38,116 nt of DNA from Pigoraptor vietnamica (taxonomy: Eukaryota; Opisthokonta; Filasterea). The stretch is taken from the NCBI GenBank assembly GCA_943704525.1, contig CALSCQ010001568.1, forward strand, positions 1 through 38,116, read 5' to 3'. Positions within the stretch are counted from its first letter, which is position 1. Every line of letters begins with the position of its first letter. The notes under the pieces were generated by a model. The model ran no database searches. It worked only from the letters and a program-made list of their open reading frames with translations, and was not told where the DNA came from. Below are positions 1 through 34,882 of the stretch, piece after piece. Position numbers and translations under genes: made by a program.

Positions 1-138
<138 letters not shown>

Positions 139-204
139 CAGCTCCACAGCTGTCTTATCTGCCTAGTGTCGCATCTTTCTCGCCCGAGTGGACGCGCAAC
201 TCAC

Positions 205-3200
205 CGGACGCCTCCGTGAACTTACGGGCGACAATCGCCTCGGGGGATATCCACTTGACCGGCAGGCGTTCCCCTGAGCGCCCCTTTCGAAAGTAGTCCT
301 TGTCCATGACGCGGCCAGCGAGGCCAAAGTCGGCGATCTTCACAAGGTACTCTCCAAAGGCGTCTTGCCCGACCATGCAGTTGCGCGCGGCAAGGTCCCT
401 GCAAGGGTACAGGGACACGGTATAAGAAATGAAGTTGCGTAATACCGTCGCTGGTCACCATAGGCAGCTTTGTGCCCGCCGTACGCATTAGCGAGATGGG
501 AGGGCAAAACAAATGCGACAACGTGTGGAGTCGTTCTCGTGTGCCTTCAACACACAAACCGGGCGTGAGGAAAAGAAAGGAAAAAAGACAACCGAGGGAG
601 CAAGTAACAGATAGAGATCAACGAAATAGTAGAGAGCACGGCCACCACGAAGTGCCCACCTGTGCACGACGCCCGCGGTGGCCAGGTACGCCATTCCCAG
701 CGCAATGTGCCGGCTGAACGTCTCAAGCATCCGCACCGTCGACGACCCCGCCACTCGCTGGTGCGGCGGAATCGCCTTGACAAACGACAGGAGGCTCCCG
801 TACGGCACGTACTCCAGAATAATGAGCATGGGCTCGTCCTGCAGGGCGACGCCAACGAGAAGCACGACGTGCGGATGCTGAAGGCCGCGCATAACTTGAG
901 CTTCCGACACGAAATCCTTACGCGCGTCGAAAGAGGCGCCGGGCTTCATCATCTTGGCGGCGCACACGCGCGGGTGTCCCTCTAGGATCACGCGGGCGCG
1001 GCACACGACGCCAAACTCGCCCTCGCCCAGCGTTTCGAACAGTTCGACGGAATCGCGCGCAACCTCGATCGCCCAGAGCGTCTCGTTCTTGGCGAGAAAC
1101 TTGTCCACGAATTCCCTGTGCGTCGCCAGGCTCTCCTTCAGCCGCACGACCGACCGACGCCACAGCAGCAGCGCGACGACGGCGCAGATGGCCAAGACGC
1201 CTCCGACGACCGTCGACGCCGCCACGATTGTGACCGTCTTGTCGCTCGAGGACGGCACCACGGACATCGGCACGCACGCCGGCAGCCCCTCCGAGCTCTG
1301 GCCCATCACCTGTCCCGCGGGACAGTCGGTGATGTCGACGGGTATCCGAAGCGCGCCCATGGTCTCCTTCAGGCGGCCCTGACCCGCCCCGTCGTCGAAC
1401 GCCCCGTACACGAACGGGTTCACGGACCGCAGGCCGAGCAGGTAAGAGCCCGGCACTTGGGCGTGAAGGCAAAAGATAATCTCCGGCTCCGTCCCAAAGC
1501 TGTGCTCGAGGTCGCCGGCGAGCGTGGCGGCGCCCTCGGCAACGAACAGCTGCAGGGACAGCTGTCGGCGAGAAGCAAGCGAGACGACGTTGCCGTACAC
1601 GTCAATGACGCGCACGGAGAGGGGCGAGAGCGTGGTGCCGCTCGTTGACACAAGCGGACGGCCGGCGCCACCACCGATCGATGCATTTCCGGAGCGAACG
1701 AGGAGACTCTCGGGGAGCCCCGTGAATCCCTCACCGCCCTGCCACCCCGGCAGCGTGGATTTGAGATCGGCCGGGAACCGGAGGGACCCCTCGAGCGCAA
1801 AGTTTGACCGCGTCGCGTCGTCAACGGCCACTTCGGAAAAGATGCCCGGCCCAAGGACGGCCATGGGGGCGACGACACTGACGGGATTCACGAAACTCAG
1901 CGATGCGTCGGAGGCGACAAAGGCAACGCCACCGACCGCGGCTTCCGCCGTGTTGTTGTTCCCTGCCACGCACGCACGTAGAGACCCTCCGTCCATCGCG
2001 ATGGCGCCCTGGGCATCGGAGTAGAGACAGCCCCCCATCGCTCGCGCCTGCGCGCCGCGCACGACGCAGTTCGTGAGATTCGCAAACCCGCCCCTGCCGG
2101 ACACTGCCACGGCGCCCCCCGCAACGTCGGCGCTGGCGTCGCTCACGTCGACGTTCTTCGCCACAAAGGTCGCTCGCGCCCCAACATACGCCAGGCCGCC
2201 AGAATCGCTGGCACGCAGCGTTCCGTAGTGGCCGCCCACGAGGGTCGCGATCGCTCCGTTACCCGCGGCATACACCGTCCCGAACGAAGCTCCCATGCGG
2301 GACGCAGAACCGTCCGTCACCACGAGCTGCCCGTGCTCGGAGACGTGCGCGAGCGAGCCGGTTTCAAGCGCAGTCGCGTCCGAAAATGTGCACGCCTGCA
2401 TGTGCACGGTACCACGGTCGTTCAGGCGCACGCCGGCGCCCGCCGAGGCGCTCGCGCCCATGACTGTCGTGTTGTCGACCCGGCAAGCGACACCAGCGCG
2501 AAGCCGCCCCCGGACTCTGCATCGCAATCGGCGAACGCAGAGTCGGCGACGTGTAGTACCGCTTTATCGGTCACGAAGAGCGCCCCGCCGTGCGTCGCAG
2601 ATGCATTCTGCACGGTCACGCGCGCCAACTCGATGCCCGCCCTCTCGCCGGCGAACAGAAAGCCGCCGTTAAACGATGCCGAGACGCCGACCGCCGAAAC
2701 ACCATGCGCAACAACGCTCGCAATGGCGTAAACGGCACCACCCACAGTGGCCGAGCCGTTTCGGAGCTCGAGATTCTCGACGTGGACGAGGCTGCCGGCA
2801 GCATAGAGGAACCCGCCCTTCTCTTCGGCAGAGCAGCCGGACGCGATCAGATTGGCAAACGAAATGTCGCGCTTGCCCAGCAGTGCAAAGGCCCCTCCGG
2901 TGGTCGCCCGGCAGTCGGTCACGTTCACATGCGCCGCAGAGAGCGTCGCATCGACCTCCACCCGCGCGAGCCCTCCCTCCGCCGCGGCGGACACGCGCGT
3001 CGCGTTCAGCCCGACCACGTCCACAGACGCAGATCCGGTGAGATGGAGCACGCCACCCATCGCCGCACGCGAGTTCTGGACGATTACGTCCCGCAGCGTC
3101 GCATTCGCCTGGCCGCCTGCATACAGGAGACCACCGGGTCCCGTCACGCTGAGTGCGCGCGCAGTGACCGATCTCGCGACAAGGCTTGCGGTACCTTGCA

Positions 3201-22748: not shown

Positions 22749-23239
22749 AGCAACCGCGCGAACGCCGTCGATCGCGTGCGCGGCGCCTGTGCGCGTGTGT
22801 TTTGTGTGCGTGGACGTCGTGCGTACACTCCAGAGGTGTGAAAGCACGAGTCGACTGTAAAAAAGGTGGCTGCCGGAGTGTCTGGACAGCAAAATAATTA
22901 TCGCCGATGACCGCAGTCAGACAGTCGTACTCTCTTGCTTCATTTCCTTGCACAACTGTCCCCGTCCTGCCGTCCCCATTGTCACGTCCTCGTAGTTTTT
23001 CGTGAATCTTGTGTTATTCATTCCCATGCATCTTGCGTCCGCCTACGCCGACGCGATGGTGTCCGCAGGGTGCGCGCGTTAACCGCGACGGAGGACACAT
23101 CCGCAATAAGACGACAAACGCGGACGCGCGCTGTCTAGGACGGCTTCGACGATATGCTGTGACTTTTGGGTTGTCGTCGTGCTTGCGATTCTGTTGAAAA
23201 AGCATCGGCAGAATCGCCTTTACATAATAGGCGCTCGAT
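22749..23239. other. Intergenic spacer, SLC44 to TTL-like copy A
   Basis: About 490 bases. Short open frames here have no coding look. It presumably contains the SLC44 3' untranslated region and the promoter of the next gene. Confidence 0.5.
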
Positions 23240-25502
23240 ATGTTTCGTTCGCTTGGTCGATGGAGCATGTTCCCTCGGCGGCGCCCCGTGCTTTTTGCGG
23301 TCTTCGTGGCCCTGCTCGCGCTCGGTGCGTACGTCCTGAGTTCGAATCCGAAGGGTCGCATGAATGGGCGCGCGGTGGAAAATGGAAGCGAAGCGCACGC
23401 ACAACACTCGTCGGCCCGCGATCGGAGCACGAGTGATGGCGAGAGCGAGAGTGACAATGGACTTGGCGAACCCGTCTCCGTGACCATGTTGGGCGTGCTC
23501 GAGCGAGAAGTGGAGGCGCGACGACGCGCAATGGCGATTCGCGATGTGGGTTTCCCACGTGCCATCGTCGTCCGCAGTCACCTCGAGTGGGCGAAGATCA
23601 TACGCAAACTGTACCGCGACGCCGGTGCGCTTGTGGACATCGTCGTCGACCATGACTCGCAAAAGGAGCTCTTTCCCCTCTCTCGCGAACAGTGGACGGT
23701 CGTCGGCGTGATGGTCAAGTGTGTGAGCAAAACGGAGAACGGCCACCAGGAGTGCATGACGGACGCGGAGTACGACGCGCTCCCTCCGCACGTGCGCGTG
23801 TCGGCGCTGCGGGGCCTTGCGCCGGACGTGCGCATCGGCAAGGACTACTTTTGCGAGACGATGATGTCGGCGATTGACGGGTTCGTGCCACAACGACCTG
23901 TGCCCGCGCCTGGCCACGAGGCCGACGCTTCGCACGATCTCGCGGACGCCCGCAGTTTCTTCTTCCCGTGTTACATACTGCCCGGCGAGCGTGACAAGCT
24001 GCGCGCTGCGGCGAGTGCGTCGAACGGCGCGTGGCCATTCGCGCGTGGACAGGCATGGCTGGTGAAGGCGGCCGACAGGCACAGCGGGCAGGGGTCGTTC
24101 GTCGTCGACTCGTTCAACGACCTCCTCGAGGGAGAGCGGGCGTCGTCCAATGCACCGGGTGTCGCCATGCCCCTGTTGCACCCGCCCCTTCTCATTCGGT
24201 CGCAAAAGTTCGACCTTCGCACGTACGTTCTCGTGACGTCCGTTGCGCCGCTGCGGGTTTACGTGCACGATGTCGGCATCGTTCTCATCGCGGCTGAGGA
24301 TTATAACGTTTCGGCGTCTGGCAGAGACATCCGCCCTCTTCAGTTCCTCACGAACAGCGAAGAAAAGTACGACGTGCGGCCGATTGCGGAGCTCGAGTGG
24401 ACGTTCGATCAGTTGCGCGAGCACTTTACGTCGCTTGGGCACGACACGGCGGCGTTTTTCCATCGCCTGCGCTCTGCGATTGCGCGCGTGTTCCTGTCGT
24501 ACGAGGCGGCGATGTTCAGAAAAGAACAGAGGGGCGGCGGCCCAGTTCTCGACAACAGTCGCAGCTACGCCGTCTTCGGAGTGGACGTCATCATCGACGC
24601 GAACATGCAGCCGAGGGTGATGGAGGTACGTCACGAGACCAGTGGCCACTTGCCGTCGCTGTCAATGTTTTGCAGTGCTCCGCGGCCGTCGTGGTGGATG
24701 TTGTGGTTAACGGACTGGCGGAATGCCTTTTCTCGCACGTCCTCACGTACGGCACTCGTTCGGACACCAGCGCGCACATTGTGCTCGCATATTTGGCACC
24801 ATGTTCCTGTAGTTTGTTCATGCGTCGGTCCCACGGACTATATGTTACATGCTCGCTGTCAACGCGCATTGCCCTTCCTGTTGTAGGCAAACGCGAACGC
24901 GCGCATGTCTCGATCGACGATCGCTGACCAGCTAAAGATCTTCATGGTACGCGACGCGCTCACTCTCATGTACGGCGAGGACGTGAAGGACAGCGACGGG
25001 CGCAATTGCGCGCGTAAATTGCACGACCGCCTGACATCACTTGGGGTCCGTGTGATCGAGGATGAGCAAGGGACTTGCGCTGGTTGGAAGCCTCCAGAAT
25101 CGATGTGTGTCGACGCAGAGGACTTGAGGGTGCTTGTGCGGGGAAGGTGAGCACGCAGGCCATGTCAAGTGCACACGTACCTACGCATACCACGCCACCG
25201 CAGTACTTCGAGCTCCGCTAGAGACACTCAATCATATCTATAATACGTTGTCAGTGTCGATTTTAATGCCCCAATCATCTCTTCGTTCCAGCTGTGAAAG
25301 AGAGCGGTGCCATGCGTCGAGTTCGCCCCCTTGCCTGTGGCGACCGGCCTTTCCAACGGCGGACGGCGAAAAGTACGACGAGTTTGTTGCGCACCTCGCG
25401 CGGCAGCACGGCGGGGACGTGCCACACCGCAGCGCATGGCGCCTTCACTGGCTGGAGACGCAGGTGATGCGGCTGGAGGAGAAAGAGAGGCAGAGTCAAT
25501 GA
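23240..25502 (+). CDS. Tubulin-tyrosine-ligase-like (ATP-grasp) protein with N-terminal membrane anchor, copy A
   Basis: Exons 23240-24625, 24887-25146, 25292-25502 keep phase: 618 aa. Residues 16-35 (PVLFAVFVALLALGAYVLSS) form a signal anchor after a basic start (MFRSLGRW), predicting type II topology. The TTL ATP-grasp core follows: nucleotide-binding WLVKAADRHSGQG (about 272-284), KFDLRTYVLVTSVAPLRVYV (about 323-342), FLTN, and YAVFGVDVIIDANMQPRVME, where the family's E-x-N metal/phosphate site continues across the intron as ME|ANAN. Family enzymes ligate amino acids to tubulin or other proteins. A membrane-anchored, possibly lumenal member is unusual. The last exon adds a conserved tail (SCERERC, CLWRPAFPTADGEK, LETQVMRLEEK) not part of the TTL core. 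A close inverted paralogue lies at 32373-34449. Confidence 0.85.
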
Positions 25503-25845: not shown

Positions 25846-28800
25846 ATGGCGCTTCACCGCTCGCGCGAGCTTGCTCTTGACGGAGACGAGACAGACGGTG
25901 AGGACGATAACGACATAGGACACCAGCGAAAGAGGGCGCGAGTGGATGGCGCGGTTGCGGGAGGAGTGACGAGCGTTGTAGCGCCAAACGGTGAGTTATG
26001 CTGGAGAGGGGTAGAGAGTCGCGTGGATGTGCGCTGACGAAGAGGCGTCCTAAAGAGCTTTCTCTTTTCTCTTGGGTCTTGTAGAAGGAGTGAGTGCGTC
26101 TCTATTGTGATATTTTCAAAGTTAGTCGGGAGTGTCCCATGTGGATCCTCGTCTCATCCATTGCATCAATTCCCGGCGCTGTAGGAGGGGACGAAGACAT
26201 CGACGACGACGCTGTGCTCCGTGCTCTTCTCGAAGCAGAGAATGCCGCAAGAGGTGACTATCTCTGCGAAAATGCCCTCGCCATTGAAGTCGTGTGGAAC
26301 ACCGATGCCCACGCGCACGTCCCATCGGTCGTCTCGCCATTTCCTCCATACGACCCTGCTATTGTGCTCCCATCCGCTCACACCAAGGCCGTTGTACACG
26401 TTCCATCCGTCTGTCTCTCCACTTTCTCTGAATTACGCTGTTATTTTATTCTGCACCCATCGACTCTCGCCTTCCCTCTTCTCACAATTTCCGCTTCGTT
26501 CCACTGCCGAGCAAAGTGGAAGCGACTCTCGCTGTCCACGAAAGCGACAGCGGCGACGCTCGTGCCCTATTGTGCGAGTCACTTCGCGCAGTCGACGCCG
26601 CGCTTCCCCTCGACAGCCTCTTGAGCGAGTGCTTGGCGGCTGCGGGGGTGCGACAGACGGCATTCGATGACGGTATGTTACTGTAGCGATATCGTGCATT
26701 GTGCTTCCGACACAGACGCACACTACAATCCTAAAGCACTGTCGCGGCGCACGCATGCGGGCCGTTGTCGTACACACTGCGTTGAATCTAAGGGTCGTTG
26801 CGCGCAAGTGCACTGTCTGCGTGCTTTATCTAAACCGCAAGGTCTCCACCTCTTCAGTGGGAAGCGCCTGCTTCGCTGCACTCGTCGCTCAGAGTCGCGA
26901 CCTGGGCATCCCTTACGAGTCGCTAGCAACAGAGTATGTCGTTGGACTGTTGAAGGAAGGTGAGATTGCGTGTGAACACATGCGCGTGTATTTGCACATG
27001 CACGTGCTGTTGGCATGCAACGCAGGGTCCTGTGTGTGTGCTCTCACGCCAATTTTCCCACCCTGCAACGTTAGTTCGATTCCCGTGGGCACCGCGTGTC
27101 GTCGATCTCAGCGAAGCAGAGTTGCGACGGGTTCGTCTCGTCTCCTCAGTGGTTCAAAGGGAGGGCGTTCGAGTGCAAAGGTGCGTATTCGCAGCGAGCG
27201 TTCACCTATATGGATGCATTGCTGACGGTCAGGGACTGCCCAGGTCGCAGCTGGTGGCCCGCCTCGGTACTTTATTTGAGGTGCCATCGGACACTCGCAG
27301 GTGGGCCAAGGAATGGTGTGCTTTTGATTTGTTTTGCGCATTTCGAGAGCGACAGAAGTGTGTGTGTGTGTGTGCATGTGGATTAGTAGGGGAACATGAT
27401 AGGCGGGAGGGCAGGGGTGCGATTGTGTGGATGTGAGCCAGTGTTGATCAGCAATGGGATGCATCGCCTTTGCAGCACTTCGGGACTCGTTCGGCGGCTT
27501 CTGGTCGCGCGTGAGCTGGACGCCTGCGCCGTCTTCACCGCCGAAGACTTTATTGCGCACTGCCGGACATTGGTATTACCCAGCGGTGCGAGGGAAACGT
27601 CTTCGGTTGGCTTACAAGGCGCACTTTTTATTCAGCTCTTGTGCGATCTCGACGAGAAGGAGTCCAGCTATGCCGGCGCTCCTTCGTCTCCGTCTGTGCT
27701 CAAATTCGTCTGTCCGCGCCTCTCTCTGTGCGCGTTCGACCGATCGTTCGTGCGCAGCGATGCACCGCTCGCGCAGTATTCGCAGTCCGTTTGCGAGGGC
27801 ATGCTCGATATGTGGAACAGCGACGAACGCCACTACATTTCTAGGTGTGTATGGGCTCGCGTCGCCGGTGAATTGCATTGCTTTTGTATTGGGATATTGT
27901 GCTTACCGTTCTCTCTTCAGGTGCAAGGCAGCGCGCCAGTTGCTGCGCCACACGCGCGAAGCAAACGTACCGACTCCGGTGCTTGCGGCGCTCCATGCGA
28001 CCATCCTTTGCTCCTTTCTGGTGACGCGAAAACCCAGTGACCCTCGCCGCGGCGACGTGACGTCGACGAGCGACCACGCGGCTGCCATTGCCGCTCTGCA
28101 GATGAAGGACTTGCCCAACCACGTGCTCATTCTTGCGGACGAGCTCGCGACGTGTGACCGCCTGGTGAATTTGTCGTCAAAGGACGCTGTCGCAGCCTTC
28201 TCTCGCGCTATCCACGGCGCACTGGACGGCCGCGGCTCGTGCGTTAACTCTGTGGCGCTTCGGGCTGTTGTTATGCTCACGGTATCGCGCTGTGGGAAGG
28301 AGCTAGAGGCTTGGGCGGACGCCGTCGTCGCAGAGAGTTCGACCGCATCGGACGCTTCCCTCTTCTTTGTAGCGTTGACGGTGATCCGGGAGGCCGGTCG
28401 TCTCGGGGCTCACGTGTTCCCCGCGTACTCGGATTGGGTAACGCGATTGACGACTGCTGACAGTGGGATCCAAGGTACTATCCATTACACCCACCCTCTC
28501 TCTCTCTCTCTGCGTGGTTTTCTCGTTCACCGTCACAGACCTATCGTCATTTTGTTAGTTTGCGACACGCTGCGCCCTATGCAAACTGCAAACTCTTACG
28601 TACCTCTCTCCTCCGGTGAGAGGACTTTGCTTCTGCTGACACATGCACACATTCTAGAGGTCTTTGCTTCTGCTGACACACGCACACATTTTAGAGGTCT
28701 TTGCTTCTGCTAACACACTCACACATTCTTCGTATCTTTATCCTCAGGTGCGGGCGCTTCCGGGCGCATGTTTCGTTCCATCGATTTCGTGCTCTCGTGT

Positions 28801-31800
28801 TTGAGCGGCGTTGCACACTTGGAAAGCGCGAACGTCTCACGTGTACGTACAATCAATTTCTTCTCGCCAGTCCCTGCTCATGTCCACTGCGCTCTATTTG
28901 CCACGTTGAGAACTTGCATTCATCACAAGAGGTGCATTCACGCTCTGCTGCATAGTCCACTGAAGACCTTTTTTGTTGCACAGCTCCATGCGCGCGTGAT
29001 CTCGGCATCTCCGTCGCTCAAAGACCGTCCCGTCGCCATCGACTTTCTCAAGCGTGTCAGGGCGCGTCTGACGACGCTCAATGCAACGGGCGCGACAGAC
29101 AGCGCAACCTTCCTTCGTGGGGAGGGCGACGCAACCGATGAGTACGCGGCGGCGGTGGTCGAAGTCGCCGAAGCCACAGCGTCGTTTGCGGCGACTGGCC
29201 GTGTTCCCAAGAACGTTCTCGAGATGTCTGTCTTTGCGCGTGAGAGGTACCGGCGCGTATTTCTCCCCGCGCTACTCGCGCCGTCAGACGGATCCCCGGA
29301 GTCCCAGAGTCGGACAGCGTTCATCGCTGCGCTTGAGCGTGCGGGAAAAATTCCACGGCAGGCCTTGGAAGAGTTTGAGTTGGCGTCGACGGCGGCGGCG
29401 ACCGCGAACTCTGCGAGTCTTCGAAGTGCCGGCCATTCTGCCGAGAATGGGGGACACAACACGACCGATTCACTAGATGTCGTCGATCTCTCGCTTTCCG
29501 ATGCGCTGTCGCGGCTCGTGGACGACATCGCCTTGGCCATTCCGGCGGCCGACGGCGAGAACTTGCGCGAGAATGCCCGGCAACGAATCGACTCCGTCTT
29601 GGGAAGACTCTCGAGTGCGCTCGCGAGAGAAATGGGCCCGGCGATAACCAACGCCGGTATGGGGGTCGCGAACACATTACGGTGCGCTGCTGCCCTGTGC
29701 GAACGAGAGGGCCTCGCGTCCAACGCAAGCTCGGCGACAATTTGGGCGTATGCAGCGCACGGTGTGCTTACTATCGCCTTTCGCCACTCTGCGTTCTTTC
29801 GGGAGCTCTGCGGCGCTTTCTGTCGGGCATGCGGACGGTGCGATGGCGGAGCGGTGTGCGCAGGGGACTCGAGTGCGACCGCGTTGGGCCGACTGTGCTT
29901 TTACCTGGCCTCCTTTCCGCTTCCGCCTTCGATGGCCACCCGCTTGAATGGCCTTTCGGCGGGTGTCGCCACATCTCTCGCAGACATCGCTGCATCGTCA
30001 ATGACCATTACGTCGTCCCCGTCCATGCAATGGGCCCTTCGCTTCGCGCGATCGTTCATGGACACCCGCAATGCTCGCGGGTGTGGCGTGCAACAAGCGA
30101 ACAACGCTTCGTTCAACAACGCTCCGTTCCCTTCACTCGATTTCGCTTCGGGACGCCTCAACGGCGGATCTGTCGTTCTTCCGTCCGCTCTCATCTCGAC
30201 CGTTGCGTGGATCGTGGAGCGCACGAATGCCTTTGTGCGCGCGTCCGCGGCCGTCCCACACCTTGCGACAGCCGCCCTGAACGACATGGTCACATTATCG
30301 GCAACGCTCTCTGGGGACATTGATGCATGGCGACGCGAAGGCGGTGCGCTTTCTGCGTCTTACTGGGCTCGACGCGAGCTTGACGTCATGCCGTTGGATG
30401 ATGTGTGCGCGGCGGACCTTCGCCCGTCTGCGTTGTCGTTATGCGCACACTCGTTTGCGCGCCGCCCTACGGAGCATCGCCCGTCATCCTCTGGGGCTGG
30501 TAGAATCGCGTGTGTTCTTGCCGACGCCCTGGCTTCGTCGGGCGGGACGACGCGACCGTCGTTTCTCGATGTCGTCGCAGCGTTTCGAAGTATGGTATCG
30601 AGCGTCGATGTGGGCAGGCGCCCCGACCGCTCTCGTGATGGCCAGATTGGAGGAGAACGTGGCACTCGAGCCAGCGCACGTCGCAGTGCAGGCGTCCCCT
30701 GGCTGCGACACGCCGTCCAGCAATCGCTGGCCGAATTGCGCGGACGTCCGGGGGATATCTTCTTGCGCGTTGACGGCCTCGCTCTTCTTGCGGGGATTTG
30801 CGGCGATGAGACTGCGCTGTTTGGTGCAGACGATTTGGACGCCGACGCGAGCGCATGTGTTCATGTTTTCAACGAGGCGTGTGCCTTGCATTGGGCGGGG
30901 TCTACGTCGCCGTACCCGTGTGCACTTTCATTGTCGCTCACTCGGTGCCTCGTGTCCTGCCTCGGTGGAGCGAGTGTGGCTCAGCGGGCCGCGTTCGCCG
31001 AATGTCCGTGGTTGGTATCGTCTGTCGTCACCCTGTGGGGTGCGCTGCGCCCGTCCATGACGCCGAAGGATGTGGACACGGTGAAAAGCGCTGCGGCGGA
31101 CGTCGAGAGCGCAGCTGCGTCCCTTGTGGTCTGGCGTGATGCCGTTCTAGACGAGTCTGTGACGGAAGTGCAATCCCTTCCCGCCGGTCTTCTGCGGTCG
31201 TCCCCGACGTCAGACGGGGCCGTGTCGCTCCCCTTGTTGGCGTCGTCAGCCCGTGCTCTACTGTCGGGCCTTCTTGCGGCAAAGGACCCGCCGTCGAAGT
31301 GTCGCCTGGTCGTGGCAAAACTGTGTGCGATGCGTAGTGCGGCAAGCACGGGAGGCGCGCAGGAGTCGGCGCAAGCGGGGAAGGCAAAGGCGCTTGACCC
31401 AATCACTATGGCACTTCTAGCAGACAGTCTCCCGAGCGACGCGAGTGCCCCACGTCCGCGGAGCGGCTCCGATGTGCTGAATACGCGTGCATTGCGCTTG
31501 GTCGTCGTCGACGCGGCTGTGAGCGGCTTGTCGGCTTACGGTGCGGCACTCGCGGAACGCATCCACGCACAGTGCGCGCAGCCTCGTACGGCATGCGCTG
31601 CTGTCCGTGGGACTGCCGACGTGACGGAAGGCCTCGTCGATAGGCTCGTGCGCATAACGGCCGCACTGATCAACGAGGACCCGACGCTCATCGCCGCGTT
31701 CGCCGCAACGGAATTCGCGTACCTCGCGTCTCTGCCGGCGGACGAGCGCGATGCGCGCCATCGCATGCTGGGGTGTCGCGCCCTGCTTGAAGGCTCGTCG

Positions 31801-32330
31801 CCTGCGGGAGAAGGCTCGAGTGGCTCCACGCAGGGCGCCACGCGACTAGGACGTCCGCTTTCTCTGTTCGCCGTCGTCCTTGAGATTGAGCCGTCTCGAC
31901 TTCCGGCGTGTTTTCTCTCGCGAGACGCAGCGAAGCTTCTCGTGTCACGTGACTTCCTGTCCGGCCTCATCTTCCAGTTCTGCAACATGGTGGACGCATA
32001 CGCGGCCGTGTCGGGCTCGGAGTGCATCTCGAACGGAGTCGCACGGGTAGGCATTTTCCGTCGCTCATGTGGCACGCTTTTCGCATTGTTTGTACGCCAT
32101 GTGCGGATGGCTGATTTTGTCCCTCTGTTTTTGCTTTGCAGGAGTTTTCGTTTCCGCGGACCATCGCTGCCATTTCGGCGTTTGTCGAGCGCATTTGCGC
32201 TTCTGCGCCGCGCGGTGCTCTTGCGGCGCTCACGCCCTCCGATTTGGACCGGACAGCGCGTCTGGACGCGCGCCTTGCCTCTGCTCTGCGTGCGCGCCTG
32301 TCTGCCGGGAATGCGGATAGGTCCCGGTAA
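25846..32330 (+). CDS. FANCA: FANCA homologue, Fanconi anaemia core-complex scaffold
   Basis: Ten exons keep phase to give 1,655 aa: 25846-25990, 26185-26253, 26517-26672, 26858-26959, 27075-27300, 27476-27844, 27921-28474, 28748-28842, 28984-32046, 32142-32330. Human FANCA (1,455 aa) aligns colinearly. VGSACFAALVAQSRDLGIPY (exon 4) matches the human IGSALQDQASRLGVPV region. ELEAWADAVV...VFPAYSDWV (exon 7) matches LLEDWVARLM...AFLSYADWF. Exon 9 VPKNVLEMSVFARERYRRVF, LPALLAP, RTAFIAALERAGKIP matches [42 protein letters not shown]. The C-terminus LIFQFCNMVDAY...FPRTIAAISAFVERI...LTPSDLDR also matches. QRKRARV in exon 1 looks like a nuclear signal. FANCA dimerises and builds the E3 core complex that monoubiquitinates FANCD2-FANCI at DNA crosslinks. 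The protein is alpha-solenoid throughout. The exon 5 donor (27300 or 27358) is the least certain junction. Confidence 0.87.
28621..28731 (+). repeat. 37-bp tandem repeat, three copies, in FANCA intron 7
   Basis: Units starting AGGNCTTTGCTTCTGCTRAC begin at 28621, 28658 and 28695 and end in CACACATTYTA(G). The array sits just upstream of the acceptor at 28747. Confidence 0.9.
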
Positions 32331-32372: not shown

Positions 32373-34449
32373 TTATCCCCCTCGAGATTCCCGAAGCGAC
32401 CGACCCTTCTCCTCCAGCCGCATCACCTGCGTCTCCAGCCAGTGGAGGCGCCATGCGCTGCGGTGTGGCACGTCCCCGCCGTGCTGCCGCGCGAGGTGCG
32501 CAACAAAATCGTCCAACTTTTCGCCGTCCGCCGTTGGGAAGGCCGGTCGCCACAGGCAAGGCTTTGCACCGTCCGGATTGCAGCGCTCTCGCTCGCAGCT
32601 GCGTATGTGCACGCGTCGTTAGTTTCAAAGGGCATCCCTCTGAGTGTAGCACTCGCGATCACCCGGCATACCTTCCCTGAAGGAGTACTGTGAGGTCCTG
32701 CGCATCCACGCAGAGGGGATCCAGCGCACCGCACTTCTCTTCCGCGCTGCCTTTGAACGCGACTCCTAATGAGGTGAGGCGTTCGTGGAGCTTTCGCGCA
32801 CACTCGCTCGTGTCGTCGCCGTACACAAGAGACAGCACGTCGCGCGCCATGGCGGTTTTCTCGGCCATTGCTACGGCGGTGCCTCTTGTCATCTTCGCGT
32901 TGGCGTTCGTCTTATCGAAAGGGACGGCGACGTGAGAAGAAAGAGAAGGTGCGTAAGCGTTAGTGGTGGGTGGAAGAGGCATACGACGGGAAATGGGTAT
33001 TCAAGCGTAAAGGATGTCTGTGTGTGTGTGTGTGTGTGCGCGCGCGCCTATTGGGTGTGAGAGAATGCAAGCTCCGCACAATGCAACTCGAACCTCCATC
33101 ACCCAAGGCTGCATGTTCGCATCAATGATGACGTCCACTCCAAACACGGCGTAGCTGTGGCTGTTGTCTGGGACCGCGCCACCGCCCCCCCTCTCTTTTC
33201 TGAACATCGCCGCCTCGTACGACAGGAACACGCGCGCAATCGCAGAGCGCACGCGTGCGAACAGGGCGTCCACGTCGTGTCCCCTTGCTGCGAAGTACTT
33301 GCGCAACTGTCCAAACGTGCGGTCGAGCTCCGTAATGTCGCGATGCTCGTATTTCGAATCGTGATTCGTGAGAAACTGCAGCGGATCGAGAGAAGTCGCG
33401 TTGGCGGCCGTGTCGTAGTCTTTTGCTGCGAGCAGCGCGAGGCCGGCGTCGTGCACGTAAACCCGCAACGGCGCAACGGACGTCACGAGAACGTACGTGC
33501 GAAGGTCGAATTTCTGCGATTCGACGAGGAGGGGCGGGTGCAACAGGGGCATGGCGACGCCCTCGGACGCCGCCCGCTCTCCCTCGAGGAGGTCGTTGAA
33601 CGAGTCGACGACGAACGACCCCTGCCCGCTGTGCCTGTCGGCCGCCTTCACCAGCCACGCCTGTCCGCGCACGAATGGCCATGCGCCGTTCGACGCACTC
33701 GCCGCAGCGCGCATCTTGTTACGCTCGCCGGGCAGTATGTAACACGGGAAGAAGAAACTGCGGGCGTCCGCGAGGTCGTGCGAAGCGTCGGCCTCACGGT
33801 CTGGCGCGGGCGCAGGTCGTTGCGGCACGAACCCGTCAATCGCCGACATCATCGTCTCGCAAAAGTAGTCCTTTCCGATGCGCACGTCCGGCGCAAGGCC
33901 CCGCAGCGCAGACACGCGCACGTGCGGAGGGAGCGCATCGTACTCCGCGTCCGTCATACACTCCTGGTGGCCGTTTTCCGTTTTGCTCACGCACTTGACC
34001 ATCACGCCGACGACAGCGAGGCCTCCGCGCACCAATGGATATAACTTGGTCTGCGGGTCGCGATCGACGCGGAGCCCAACGCTCCTCCCGACGTCGGTGT
34101 AGAGGCTGTGGTACATATCGGCCCAGGCTGGGTGGCTCCGAACAACCGCAATGCGCTGCGCAAGCGGCGGCATGGCAGAAGCGCGCGCATCAACGGCGCT
34201 CGTGAGAAAGTCCAACATATTATCACGCTGAGTGGTTCGCCGTTGCAATTCGTCGAAATTGTCTCGCGTAGTGGAGCCTGCATCGCCTTGTGCGCTTATC
34301 ACAGCCAAATCGGCGCTGTCAGCGGCTCCCTCAGGTACTGGAGACCTCAGCCGCTTCGAGTGCCATATTGCGAACACGACGGCGAATACGAATATGACCG
34401 TCAACACGCGCAAACGTCGCGACCCGCAAAACAACCTCGTCAAAGGCAT
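32373..34449 (-). CDS. Tubulin-tyrosine-ligase-like (ATP-grasp) protein with N-terminal membrane anchor, copy B
   Basis: Minus-strand exons 34449-33094, 32910-32672, 32598-32373 give 606 aa with the same intron positions and phases as copy A. ATG at 34449 (MPLTRLFCGSRRLRVL) leads into a membrane segment (VLTVIFVFAVVFAIW). The core has GQAWLVKAADRHSGQGSFVV, KFDLRTYVLVTSVAPLRVYV, FLTN and YAVFGVDVIIDANMQPWVME|TNAN. The tail keeps SCERERC and CLWRPAFPTADGEK. Central and last-exon segments are almost identical to copy A at DNA level, while residues before VVGVMVKCVSK and around 33200-33450 differ strongly. Its stop codon lies 42 bases from that of the convergent FANCA gene. Exon 2 uses an AAG acceptor (GATAAG), weaker than most here. 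Substrate unknown. Confidence 0.85.
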
Positions 34450-34882
34450 GTTTAAAGGCGCCGGGCGGCCTGCAGTCGGGCACTGAGACCCGCCGCGGCG
34501 CCGGCCCCACTCGGCGCGGACGGCAACTCTGAACGGTCGGCTCCGGACACACGGCGTGAGCCACTGCAGCCCTCCACTTGTGCAAGTAGTAAGAGAATGC
34601 CAATCGCGCGACTTATAGGACAAAGGACGCCCGTTACTTCGACGAAGTTTTGAGTTCCCGTGTTCCAGGCTTCGCCCAAGCCGTTAGGACTGACGTTGCA
34701 GCGTGCCCAGACACACGGTGTGTCTGCCAGAGAATGTTCCGGGCAGGTTACCAATTGATAGATCACGTGATTGCACGTGAGAGTCCCCACGTGTTGAAAG
34801 TGTTCAGCGCATGACCGTTGAAGTGGACTGCGCTCTTCTTTCTCGCAGCCCTTTGCGCCGAGAGAGACAAAGGCCACAGAAA
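34450..34882. promoter_or_regulatory. Divergent intergenic region, TTL-like copy B and GNL3L
   Basis: 433 bases between head-to-head start codons. I see no gene. Promoters of both genes are expected here from orientation alone. Confidence 0.35.

What the first reader, a model, noticed from the sequence alone, without database searches (positions are those of the whole stretch)
25846..32330. A full-length FANCA homologue in a protist
The hand-built 10-exon model keeps phase at every junction and gives a 1,655-residue protein that aligns with human FANCA in order from N- to C-terminus, including the FLPALL(A/T)P...IP block and the last solenoid repeats. Subunits of the Fanconi core complex such as FANCA evolve fast and are patchily reported outside animals, so a clear unicellular homologue would help date the core complex. 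The match is from my memory of the human protein, compared by eye.
Basis: partly seen in the sequence, partly recalled or inferred. Interest (0 to 1): 0.82.

Follow-up and report, generated by a model that had tools for sequence, protein, structure and literature searches.

The report
FANCA gene in an animal-related unicellular genome
The gene is a real relative of human FANCA, a scaffold subunit of the Fanconi DNA-crosslink repair complex, in what looks like a choanoflagellate-type relative of animals; such relatives have been reported before, so it is a useful but expected family member rather than a surprise.

Summary
The ten-exon model rebuilds exactly (1,655 residues, phase kept, stop at 32328-32330). 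Residues 484-711 are FANCA: Pfam FANCA_helical E=2.7e-14, Fanconi_A_N E=5.6e-5 across two introns, PDB FANCA E=1.9e-12, 0 of 200 shuffles as good. 'Full length, in order from N to C' is only partly shown. Residues 1-483 do not differ from shuffled sequence. The 944 residues after the core carry no Pfam FANCA domain; an extension anchored on the core is reached by 1, 0 and 7 of 200 shuffles at three gap settings and by 0 of 65 overlapping decoys in raw score at two. The same genome encodes FANCL, FANCD2 and FANCI, with both ubiquitin-acceptor lysines kept. FANCE, FANCC and FAAP100 were not found, but those searches could not show absence. A receptor tyrosine kinase in the window, cadherin arrays and a separate, animal-like thymidylate synthase point to a choanoflagellate-grade holozoan (no tree made). 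Fanconi_A_N in choanoflagellates and FANCA in early-diverging fungi are already in print. The live question is whether FANCA's C-terminal half predates vertebrates, against a published claim for its last domain.

The parts
25846..25990 (+). exon 1, residues 1-49; contains a basic RKRARV stretch that could be a nuclear localisation signal (read by eye, untested)
26185..26253 (+). exon 2, residues 49-72
26517..26672 (+). exon 3, residues 72-124; 5' boundary uncertain (AAG acceptor)
26858..26959 (+). exon 4, residues 124-158
27075..27300 (+). exon 5, residues 158-233; a donor at 27316 also keeps the frame (1,660 aa)
27476..27844 (+). exon 6, residues 233-356
27921..28474 (+). exon 7, residues 356-541; the recognisable FANCA core begins at 484 (Fanconi_A_N)
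28748..28842 (+). exon 8, residues 541-572, inside the Fanconi_A_N match
28984..32046 (+). exon 9, residues 573-1593; FANCA_helical at residues 629-703, FLPALLAP...KIP block, then a long C-terminal half
32142..32330 (+). exon 10, residues 1594-1655 and stop codon 32328-32330

Best explanation
The locus is the FANCA gene of a unicellular, choanoflagellate-grade holozoan. Most likely its long alpha-helical protein acts as in vertebrates: a scaffold and chromatin-targeting subunit that brings the FANCL ubiquitin ligase to crosslinked or stalled DNA, so that FANCD2 and FANCI are mono-ubiquitinated on conserved lysines. Shown: the gene model, the FANCA core (residues 484-711), no second copy of exon 9 found in the assembly, FANCL with its RING, FANCD2 and FANCI with both acceptor lysines. 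Inferred: the host group, that the C-terminal half is homologous FANCA arc, binding to FANCG/FAAP20-like partners, and the function itself.
For: FANCA_helical 53.8 bits over a cut-off of 28, and Fanconi_A_N 23.2 bits (below its cut-off of 27, E=5.6e-5) just before it; the same order in human FANCA. PDB phmmer of the exon-9 frame hits two sequences at E<=1, both FANCA (7kzp_A E=1.9e-12, 6lhs_B 1.1e-5). A two-vertebrate FANCA profile matches residues 484-711 with 62 bits; z=30.8, 0 of 200 shuffles. One match to exon 9 in the assembly, itself. FANCD2 738 bits, K561 equivalent in VIRKQLS; FANCL_C, RING E=9.4e-27 to FANCL 4ccg, FANCL_d2 26.7 bits over 23.7; FANCI_S4, S1 and HD2, K523 equivalent in VLRKSVF (read). 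C-terminal collinearity: anchored extension reached by 1, 0 and 7 of 200 shuffles at three gap settings and, in raw score, by 0 of 65 decoys at two.
Against: FANCA_arcN and FANCA_CTD give no match in the model or in C-terminal fragments, though both score over 330 bits in human FANCA. Residues 1-483 and, as plain pairwise alignments, residues 712-1655 do not differ from shuffles (77 and 29 of 200 as good in local mode, 135 and 40 of 200 in global mode); the left-flank extension is reached by 200, 19 and 18 of 200 shuffles. The right-flank z at gap 11/1 is 4.34 but 3.97 from the 200 shuffles, and one decoy had 4.03; the decoys overlap one another. PDB searches with residues 233-604 and with the last 125 residues found nothing. 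No FANCE, FANCC or FAAP100 match. No RNA data.
Confidence: 0.9

Rival explanations
1. A protein that keeps only the FANCA N-terminal and helical core, joined to an unrelated C-terminal half; the last domain of FANCA was added in vertebrates.
For: Published: pre-metazoan Fanconi_A_N, vertebrate acquisition of the Fanconi_A domain (PMC6792448, passages). No arcN or CTD Pfam match here, and no CTD match in the six-frame genome (where no control rang). Plain alignment of residues 712-1655 to human is not significant (29 of 200 shuffles as good).
Against: 944 residues follow the core, against 822 in human after residue 633, and their anchored extension is reached by 1, 0 and 7 of 200 shuffles and by 0 of 65 decoys in raw score. 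This half diverges faster in vertebrates too: the second vertebrate FANCA scores 434 bits of a self-score of 1763 with the human C-half, against 694 of 1556 with the N-half.
Confidence: 0.3
2. A different helical-repeat family that resembles FANCA by chance or composition.
For: Most of the protein's length is unrecognised.
Against: Core z=30.8; both PDB hits at E<=1 are FANCA; two adjacent FANCA Pfam domains in the right order.
Confidence: 0.02
3. The exons belong to two or more genes, with FANCA only in exons 7-9.
For: Exons 1-6 have no statistical link to FANCA and one acceptor is weak.
Against: All junctions keep phase; the best local match of the N-part lies near the expected diagonal (residues 59-158 to human 30-124), though it is not significant.
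Confidence: 0.08

Closest known systems
Vertebrate FANCA (7kzp_A, human; 6lhs_B, Xenopus as I recall) in Fanconi core-complex structures
   Same: End of Fanconi_A_N and helical domain in the same order; TG.(I/V)P..V(M/L)E.S(I/V)F and FLPALL.P...IP blocks; 30 and 23% identity in the core; similar overall length
   Different: 1,655 against 1,455 residues; arcN and CTD not recognised by Pfam; the recognisable Fanconi_A_N part is only the last third of that domain (profile 237-353 of 355)
Choanoflagellate proteins with Fanconi_A_N (PMC6792448; outline and passages)
   Same: FANCA N-terminal domain in a unicellular relative of animals; Fanconi_A domain reported there only from vertebrates
   Different: Here a whole gene of ten exons with a long C-terminal half can be read; no sequence of theirs was compared
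FANCA of early-diverging fungi such as Mucor lusitanicus (PMC11061109; passages, Results part 1 and Discussion part 1)
   Same: FANCA together with FANCL and FANCD2 outside animals

Membership tests
FANCA | FANCA helical domain (PF24781) | tested here: met
   53.8 bits, cut-off 28, E=2.7e-14
FANCA | Fanconi_A_N (PF15865) directly before it | tested here: inconclusive
   E=5.6e-5, 23.2 bits, below the curated 27; only profile 237-353, right order
FANCA | arcN (PF24783) | tested here: not met
   no match in model or fragments; human control 337 bits. Divergence and absence are not told apart
FANCA | C-terminal domain (PF03511) | tested here: not met
   no match; human control 355 bits at 1225-1431. 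Weak collinear signal up to human 1273
FANCA | nearest sequences of known structure are FANCA | tested here: met
   2 of 2 PDB sequences at E<=1 for the exon-9 frame are FANCA
FANCA | binds FANCG and FAAP20 in the core complex | not testable with these tools
   needs biochemistry; no search for FANCG or FAAP20 was made
Fanconi pathway in the same genome | FANCL RING E3, FANCD2 and FANCI with acceptor lysines | tested here: met
Fanconi core complex, other subunits | FANCE, FANCC, FAAP100 | tested here: inconclusive
   no match in 1 of 1 genome each; none of 14 control genomes rang, so absence is not shown
Choanoflagellate (host) | receptor tyrosine kinases, cadherin arrays, separate thymidylate synthase | tested here: inconclusive
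   kinase with HRDLAARN (joined by eye over an intron), DFGLA and PVKWISPE in the window; 47 cadherin matches on two contigs, 39 over the cut-off, though one prokaryote control rang too; TS with no match to four DHFR motif patterns in ~3.7 kb upstream, best PDB scores with chains I recall as human. No tree was made

The most novel reading that the evidence does not exclude
The C-terminal half of FANCA, including the arc and at least the start of the CTD, was already present in the unicellular ancestor of animals and has diverged beyond Pfam's reach, contrary to the published view that the Fanconi_A domain was acquired in vertebrates; so a FANCA-type scaffold around FANCL is at least as old as the split of animals from their unicellular relatives. 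(Odds lowered from 0.65 to 0.6 on re-checking, because one decoy's z comes level with the real one at the first gap setting.)
Probability: 0.6. Interest if true: 0.5.

Novelty: new member of a known kind. Interest (0 to 1): 0.35.

Why it matters
A whole FANCA gene beside FANCL, FANCD2 and FANCI in a unicellular relative of animals supports a core complex with a FANCA-type scaffold before animals, and gives a concrete sequence with which to test whether FANCA's C-terminal domain is a vertebrate addition, as has been published, or simply evolves too fast to be recognised.

Tried and rejected
PDB searches with a 372-residue piece (residues 233-604) and with the last 125 residues found nothing at E<=10. 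Pfam on three C-terminal fragments found no FANCA domain, only two chance-level hits of other families (E 0.088 and 0.19). A scan of viral contigs for relatives gave 39 pattern matches and no homologue. EF-1 alpha was tried as a marker of the host; its middle part, with the diagnostic insertion, is not in the assembled pieces found. 18S rRNA was tried and the machine gave no usable answer. An eye match of the last exon to human 1278-1331 is not upheld: the plain local alignment and the two anchored paths place the tail differently. In one search the fourth of five sequences, meant as a FANCL piece, was mistyped in two letters and matched nothing; it is not used.

No claim is made that something is absent from print. 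Papers: PMC6792448 (outline and passages), PMC11061109 (outline, passages, Results part 1 of 2, Discussion part 1 of 2), PMC2730050 (passages), PMC10085685 (passages), PMC4657327 (search listing only).

Full report
Gene model. The window is contig C645 of a eukaryotic assembly of 32.5 Mb in 1,395 contigs. Nine of nine introns start GT and end AG; only the one before exon 3 lacks a pyrimidine-AG acceptor (alternatives). Exon 5 has two usable donors.

Identity. Pfam finds FANCA_helical (residues 629-703, 53.8 bits, E=2.7e-14) and, just before it, the end of Fanconi_A_N (residues 483-605, 23.2 bits, E=5.6e-5, under the curated 27 bits). Before splicing, Fanconi_A_N scored 12.6 bits, so the exon 7-8-9 junctions are supported by homology. 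PDB phmmer of the exon-9 frame returns two sequences at E<=1, both named FANCA (that 7kzp is human and 6lhs Xenopus is recalled). A profile of these two matches residues 484-711 with 62 bits at profile positions 411-633, human about 408-629. In the core the local score is 289 against a shuffle mean of 44.7 (z 30.8, 0 of 200). Identity to the two vertebrate sequences is 30 and 23% in a 231-column alignment. Exon 9 has one match in the genome, itself.

How much is full length. Human FANCA carries four Pfam domains: Fanconi_A_N 170-524, helical 544-625, arcN 648-880, CTD 1225-1431. Only the first two are seen here. Pairwise tests outside the core fail: residues 1-483 are matched or beaten by 77 of 200 shuffles and residues 712-1655 by 29 of 200 (local; in global mode 135 and 40 of 200). 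Four smaller cuts gave local z 1.1 to 2.3. A stricter question is whether the alignment, once anchored next to the core, extends. To the right 1, 0 and 7 of 200 shuffles reach the real score at gap settings 11/1, 8/0.5 and 6/0.3; to the left 200, 19 and 18 of 200 do. At the first two settings I also used 65 decoys: overlapping 944-residue pieces of a string of nine open frames of this genome (one of them the FANCA N-part, two without any Pfam match), their reverses, and the reverse of the real flank. 0 of 65 reached the real raw score at either setting. By z, 0 of 65 reached it in that run (4.34 against a highest decoy 4.03 at 11/1; 3.09 against 2.73 at 8/0.5), but the 200 shuffles give the real flank only 3.97 at 11/1, so at that setting one decoy is level. 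The 11/1 path ends at residue 1336 against human 1273, its best block being residues 1241-1264 against human 1158-1181. I read this as probable homology of the C-terminal half with an unresolved tail, not as proof.

Partners. FANCD2 (three pieces on C1110, best 738 bits) aligns with FANCD2 6vaa_B over residues 165-1347 of 1,451 and keeps the K561 position in VIRKQLS. FANCL has its C-terminal RING in two exons on C1309 (E=9.4e-27 to FANCL 4ccg) and a FANCL_d2 match. FANCI is on C298 (S4; S1 and HD2), and the exon ending VILVLRKSVFAR keeps the lysine at position 523 of 7kzq_U. That K561 and K523 are the ubiquitin sites is recalled. FANCE, FANCC and FAAP100 gave no match, but none of the 14 control genomes rang and introns cut the frames, so these are not absences. 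FANCG, FANCB, FANCF, FAAP20 and FANCM were not searched.

Host. The window itself holds a receptor tyrosine kinase (ectodomain, hydrophobic segment, HRDLAARN joined by eye over an intron, DFGLA, PVKWISPE). The genome holds cadherin arrays on C1328 and C874: 47 matches at E<=0.001 of 50 scored candidates, 39 over the cut-off; the same family rings in 1 of 14 control genomes, a prokaryote. The thymidylate synthase on C341 has no match to four recalled DHFR motif patterns in the upstream ~3.7 kb, and its best PDB scores (498 bits) are with chains I recall as human, against 444.5 bits for the best DHFR-TS fusion (60 of 117 sequences shown). From established knowledge, receptor tyrosine kinases and large cadherins together mark animals and choanoflagellates, and a separate TS fits opisthokonts. 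I conclude a choanoflagellate-grade holozoan, without a tree.

Prior work. Lopez-Escardo et al. 2019 (PMC6792448, passages) report Fanconi_A_N in uncultured choanoflagellates, its pre-metazoan origin, and a vertebrate acquisition of the Fanconi_A domain. Barua et al. 2024 (PMC11061109) report FANCA in Mucoromycota and a fragmentary pathway in Salpingoeca, Monosiga, Capsaspora and Sphaeroforma, and hold that the full core set likely arose in the ancestor of vertebrates. Zhang et al. 2009 (PMC2730050, passages) placed most core subunits in the ancestral metazoan. The present gene agrees with FANCA being older than animals, and adds a whole gene whose C-terminal half bears on the vertebrate-acquisition claim.

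Verdict. A real FANCA homologue, ordinary in kind, with one open and testable point. Interest 0.35.

Noticed in passing
roughly 23231-25490 (+) and 32400-34683 (-): Two tubulin-tyrosine-ligase-like genes stand in inverted orientation on either side of FANCA; four arm pairs of 147-450 nt are 77-96% complementary. The FANCA gene fills most of the spacer.
   Followed up: partly
1-2563 (-): Receptor tyrosine kinase with a weak beta-helix match in its ectodomain (E=0.029, under cut-off), running towards the contig edge.
   Followed up: partly
L019, G000:C788 about 27190-28687 (-): A 39% GC stretch in an assembly whose window is 59% GC, with a thymidylate synthase fused (by eye) to a DHFR-like part and AT-rich neighbouring frames; it may be a giant-virus piece (inference) and differs from the TS on C341. 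Observed only.
   Followed up: partly
L013, L014, L015 (G000:C137, C435, C310): EF-1 alpha ends lie at contig ends, with the C-terminal piece on two contigs, as if multi-copy genes broke the assembly.
   Followed up: no
28843-28983: The intron between exons 8 and 9 is 141 nt and open in frame, so its retention would add 47 residues without a frameshift.
   Followed up: no
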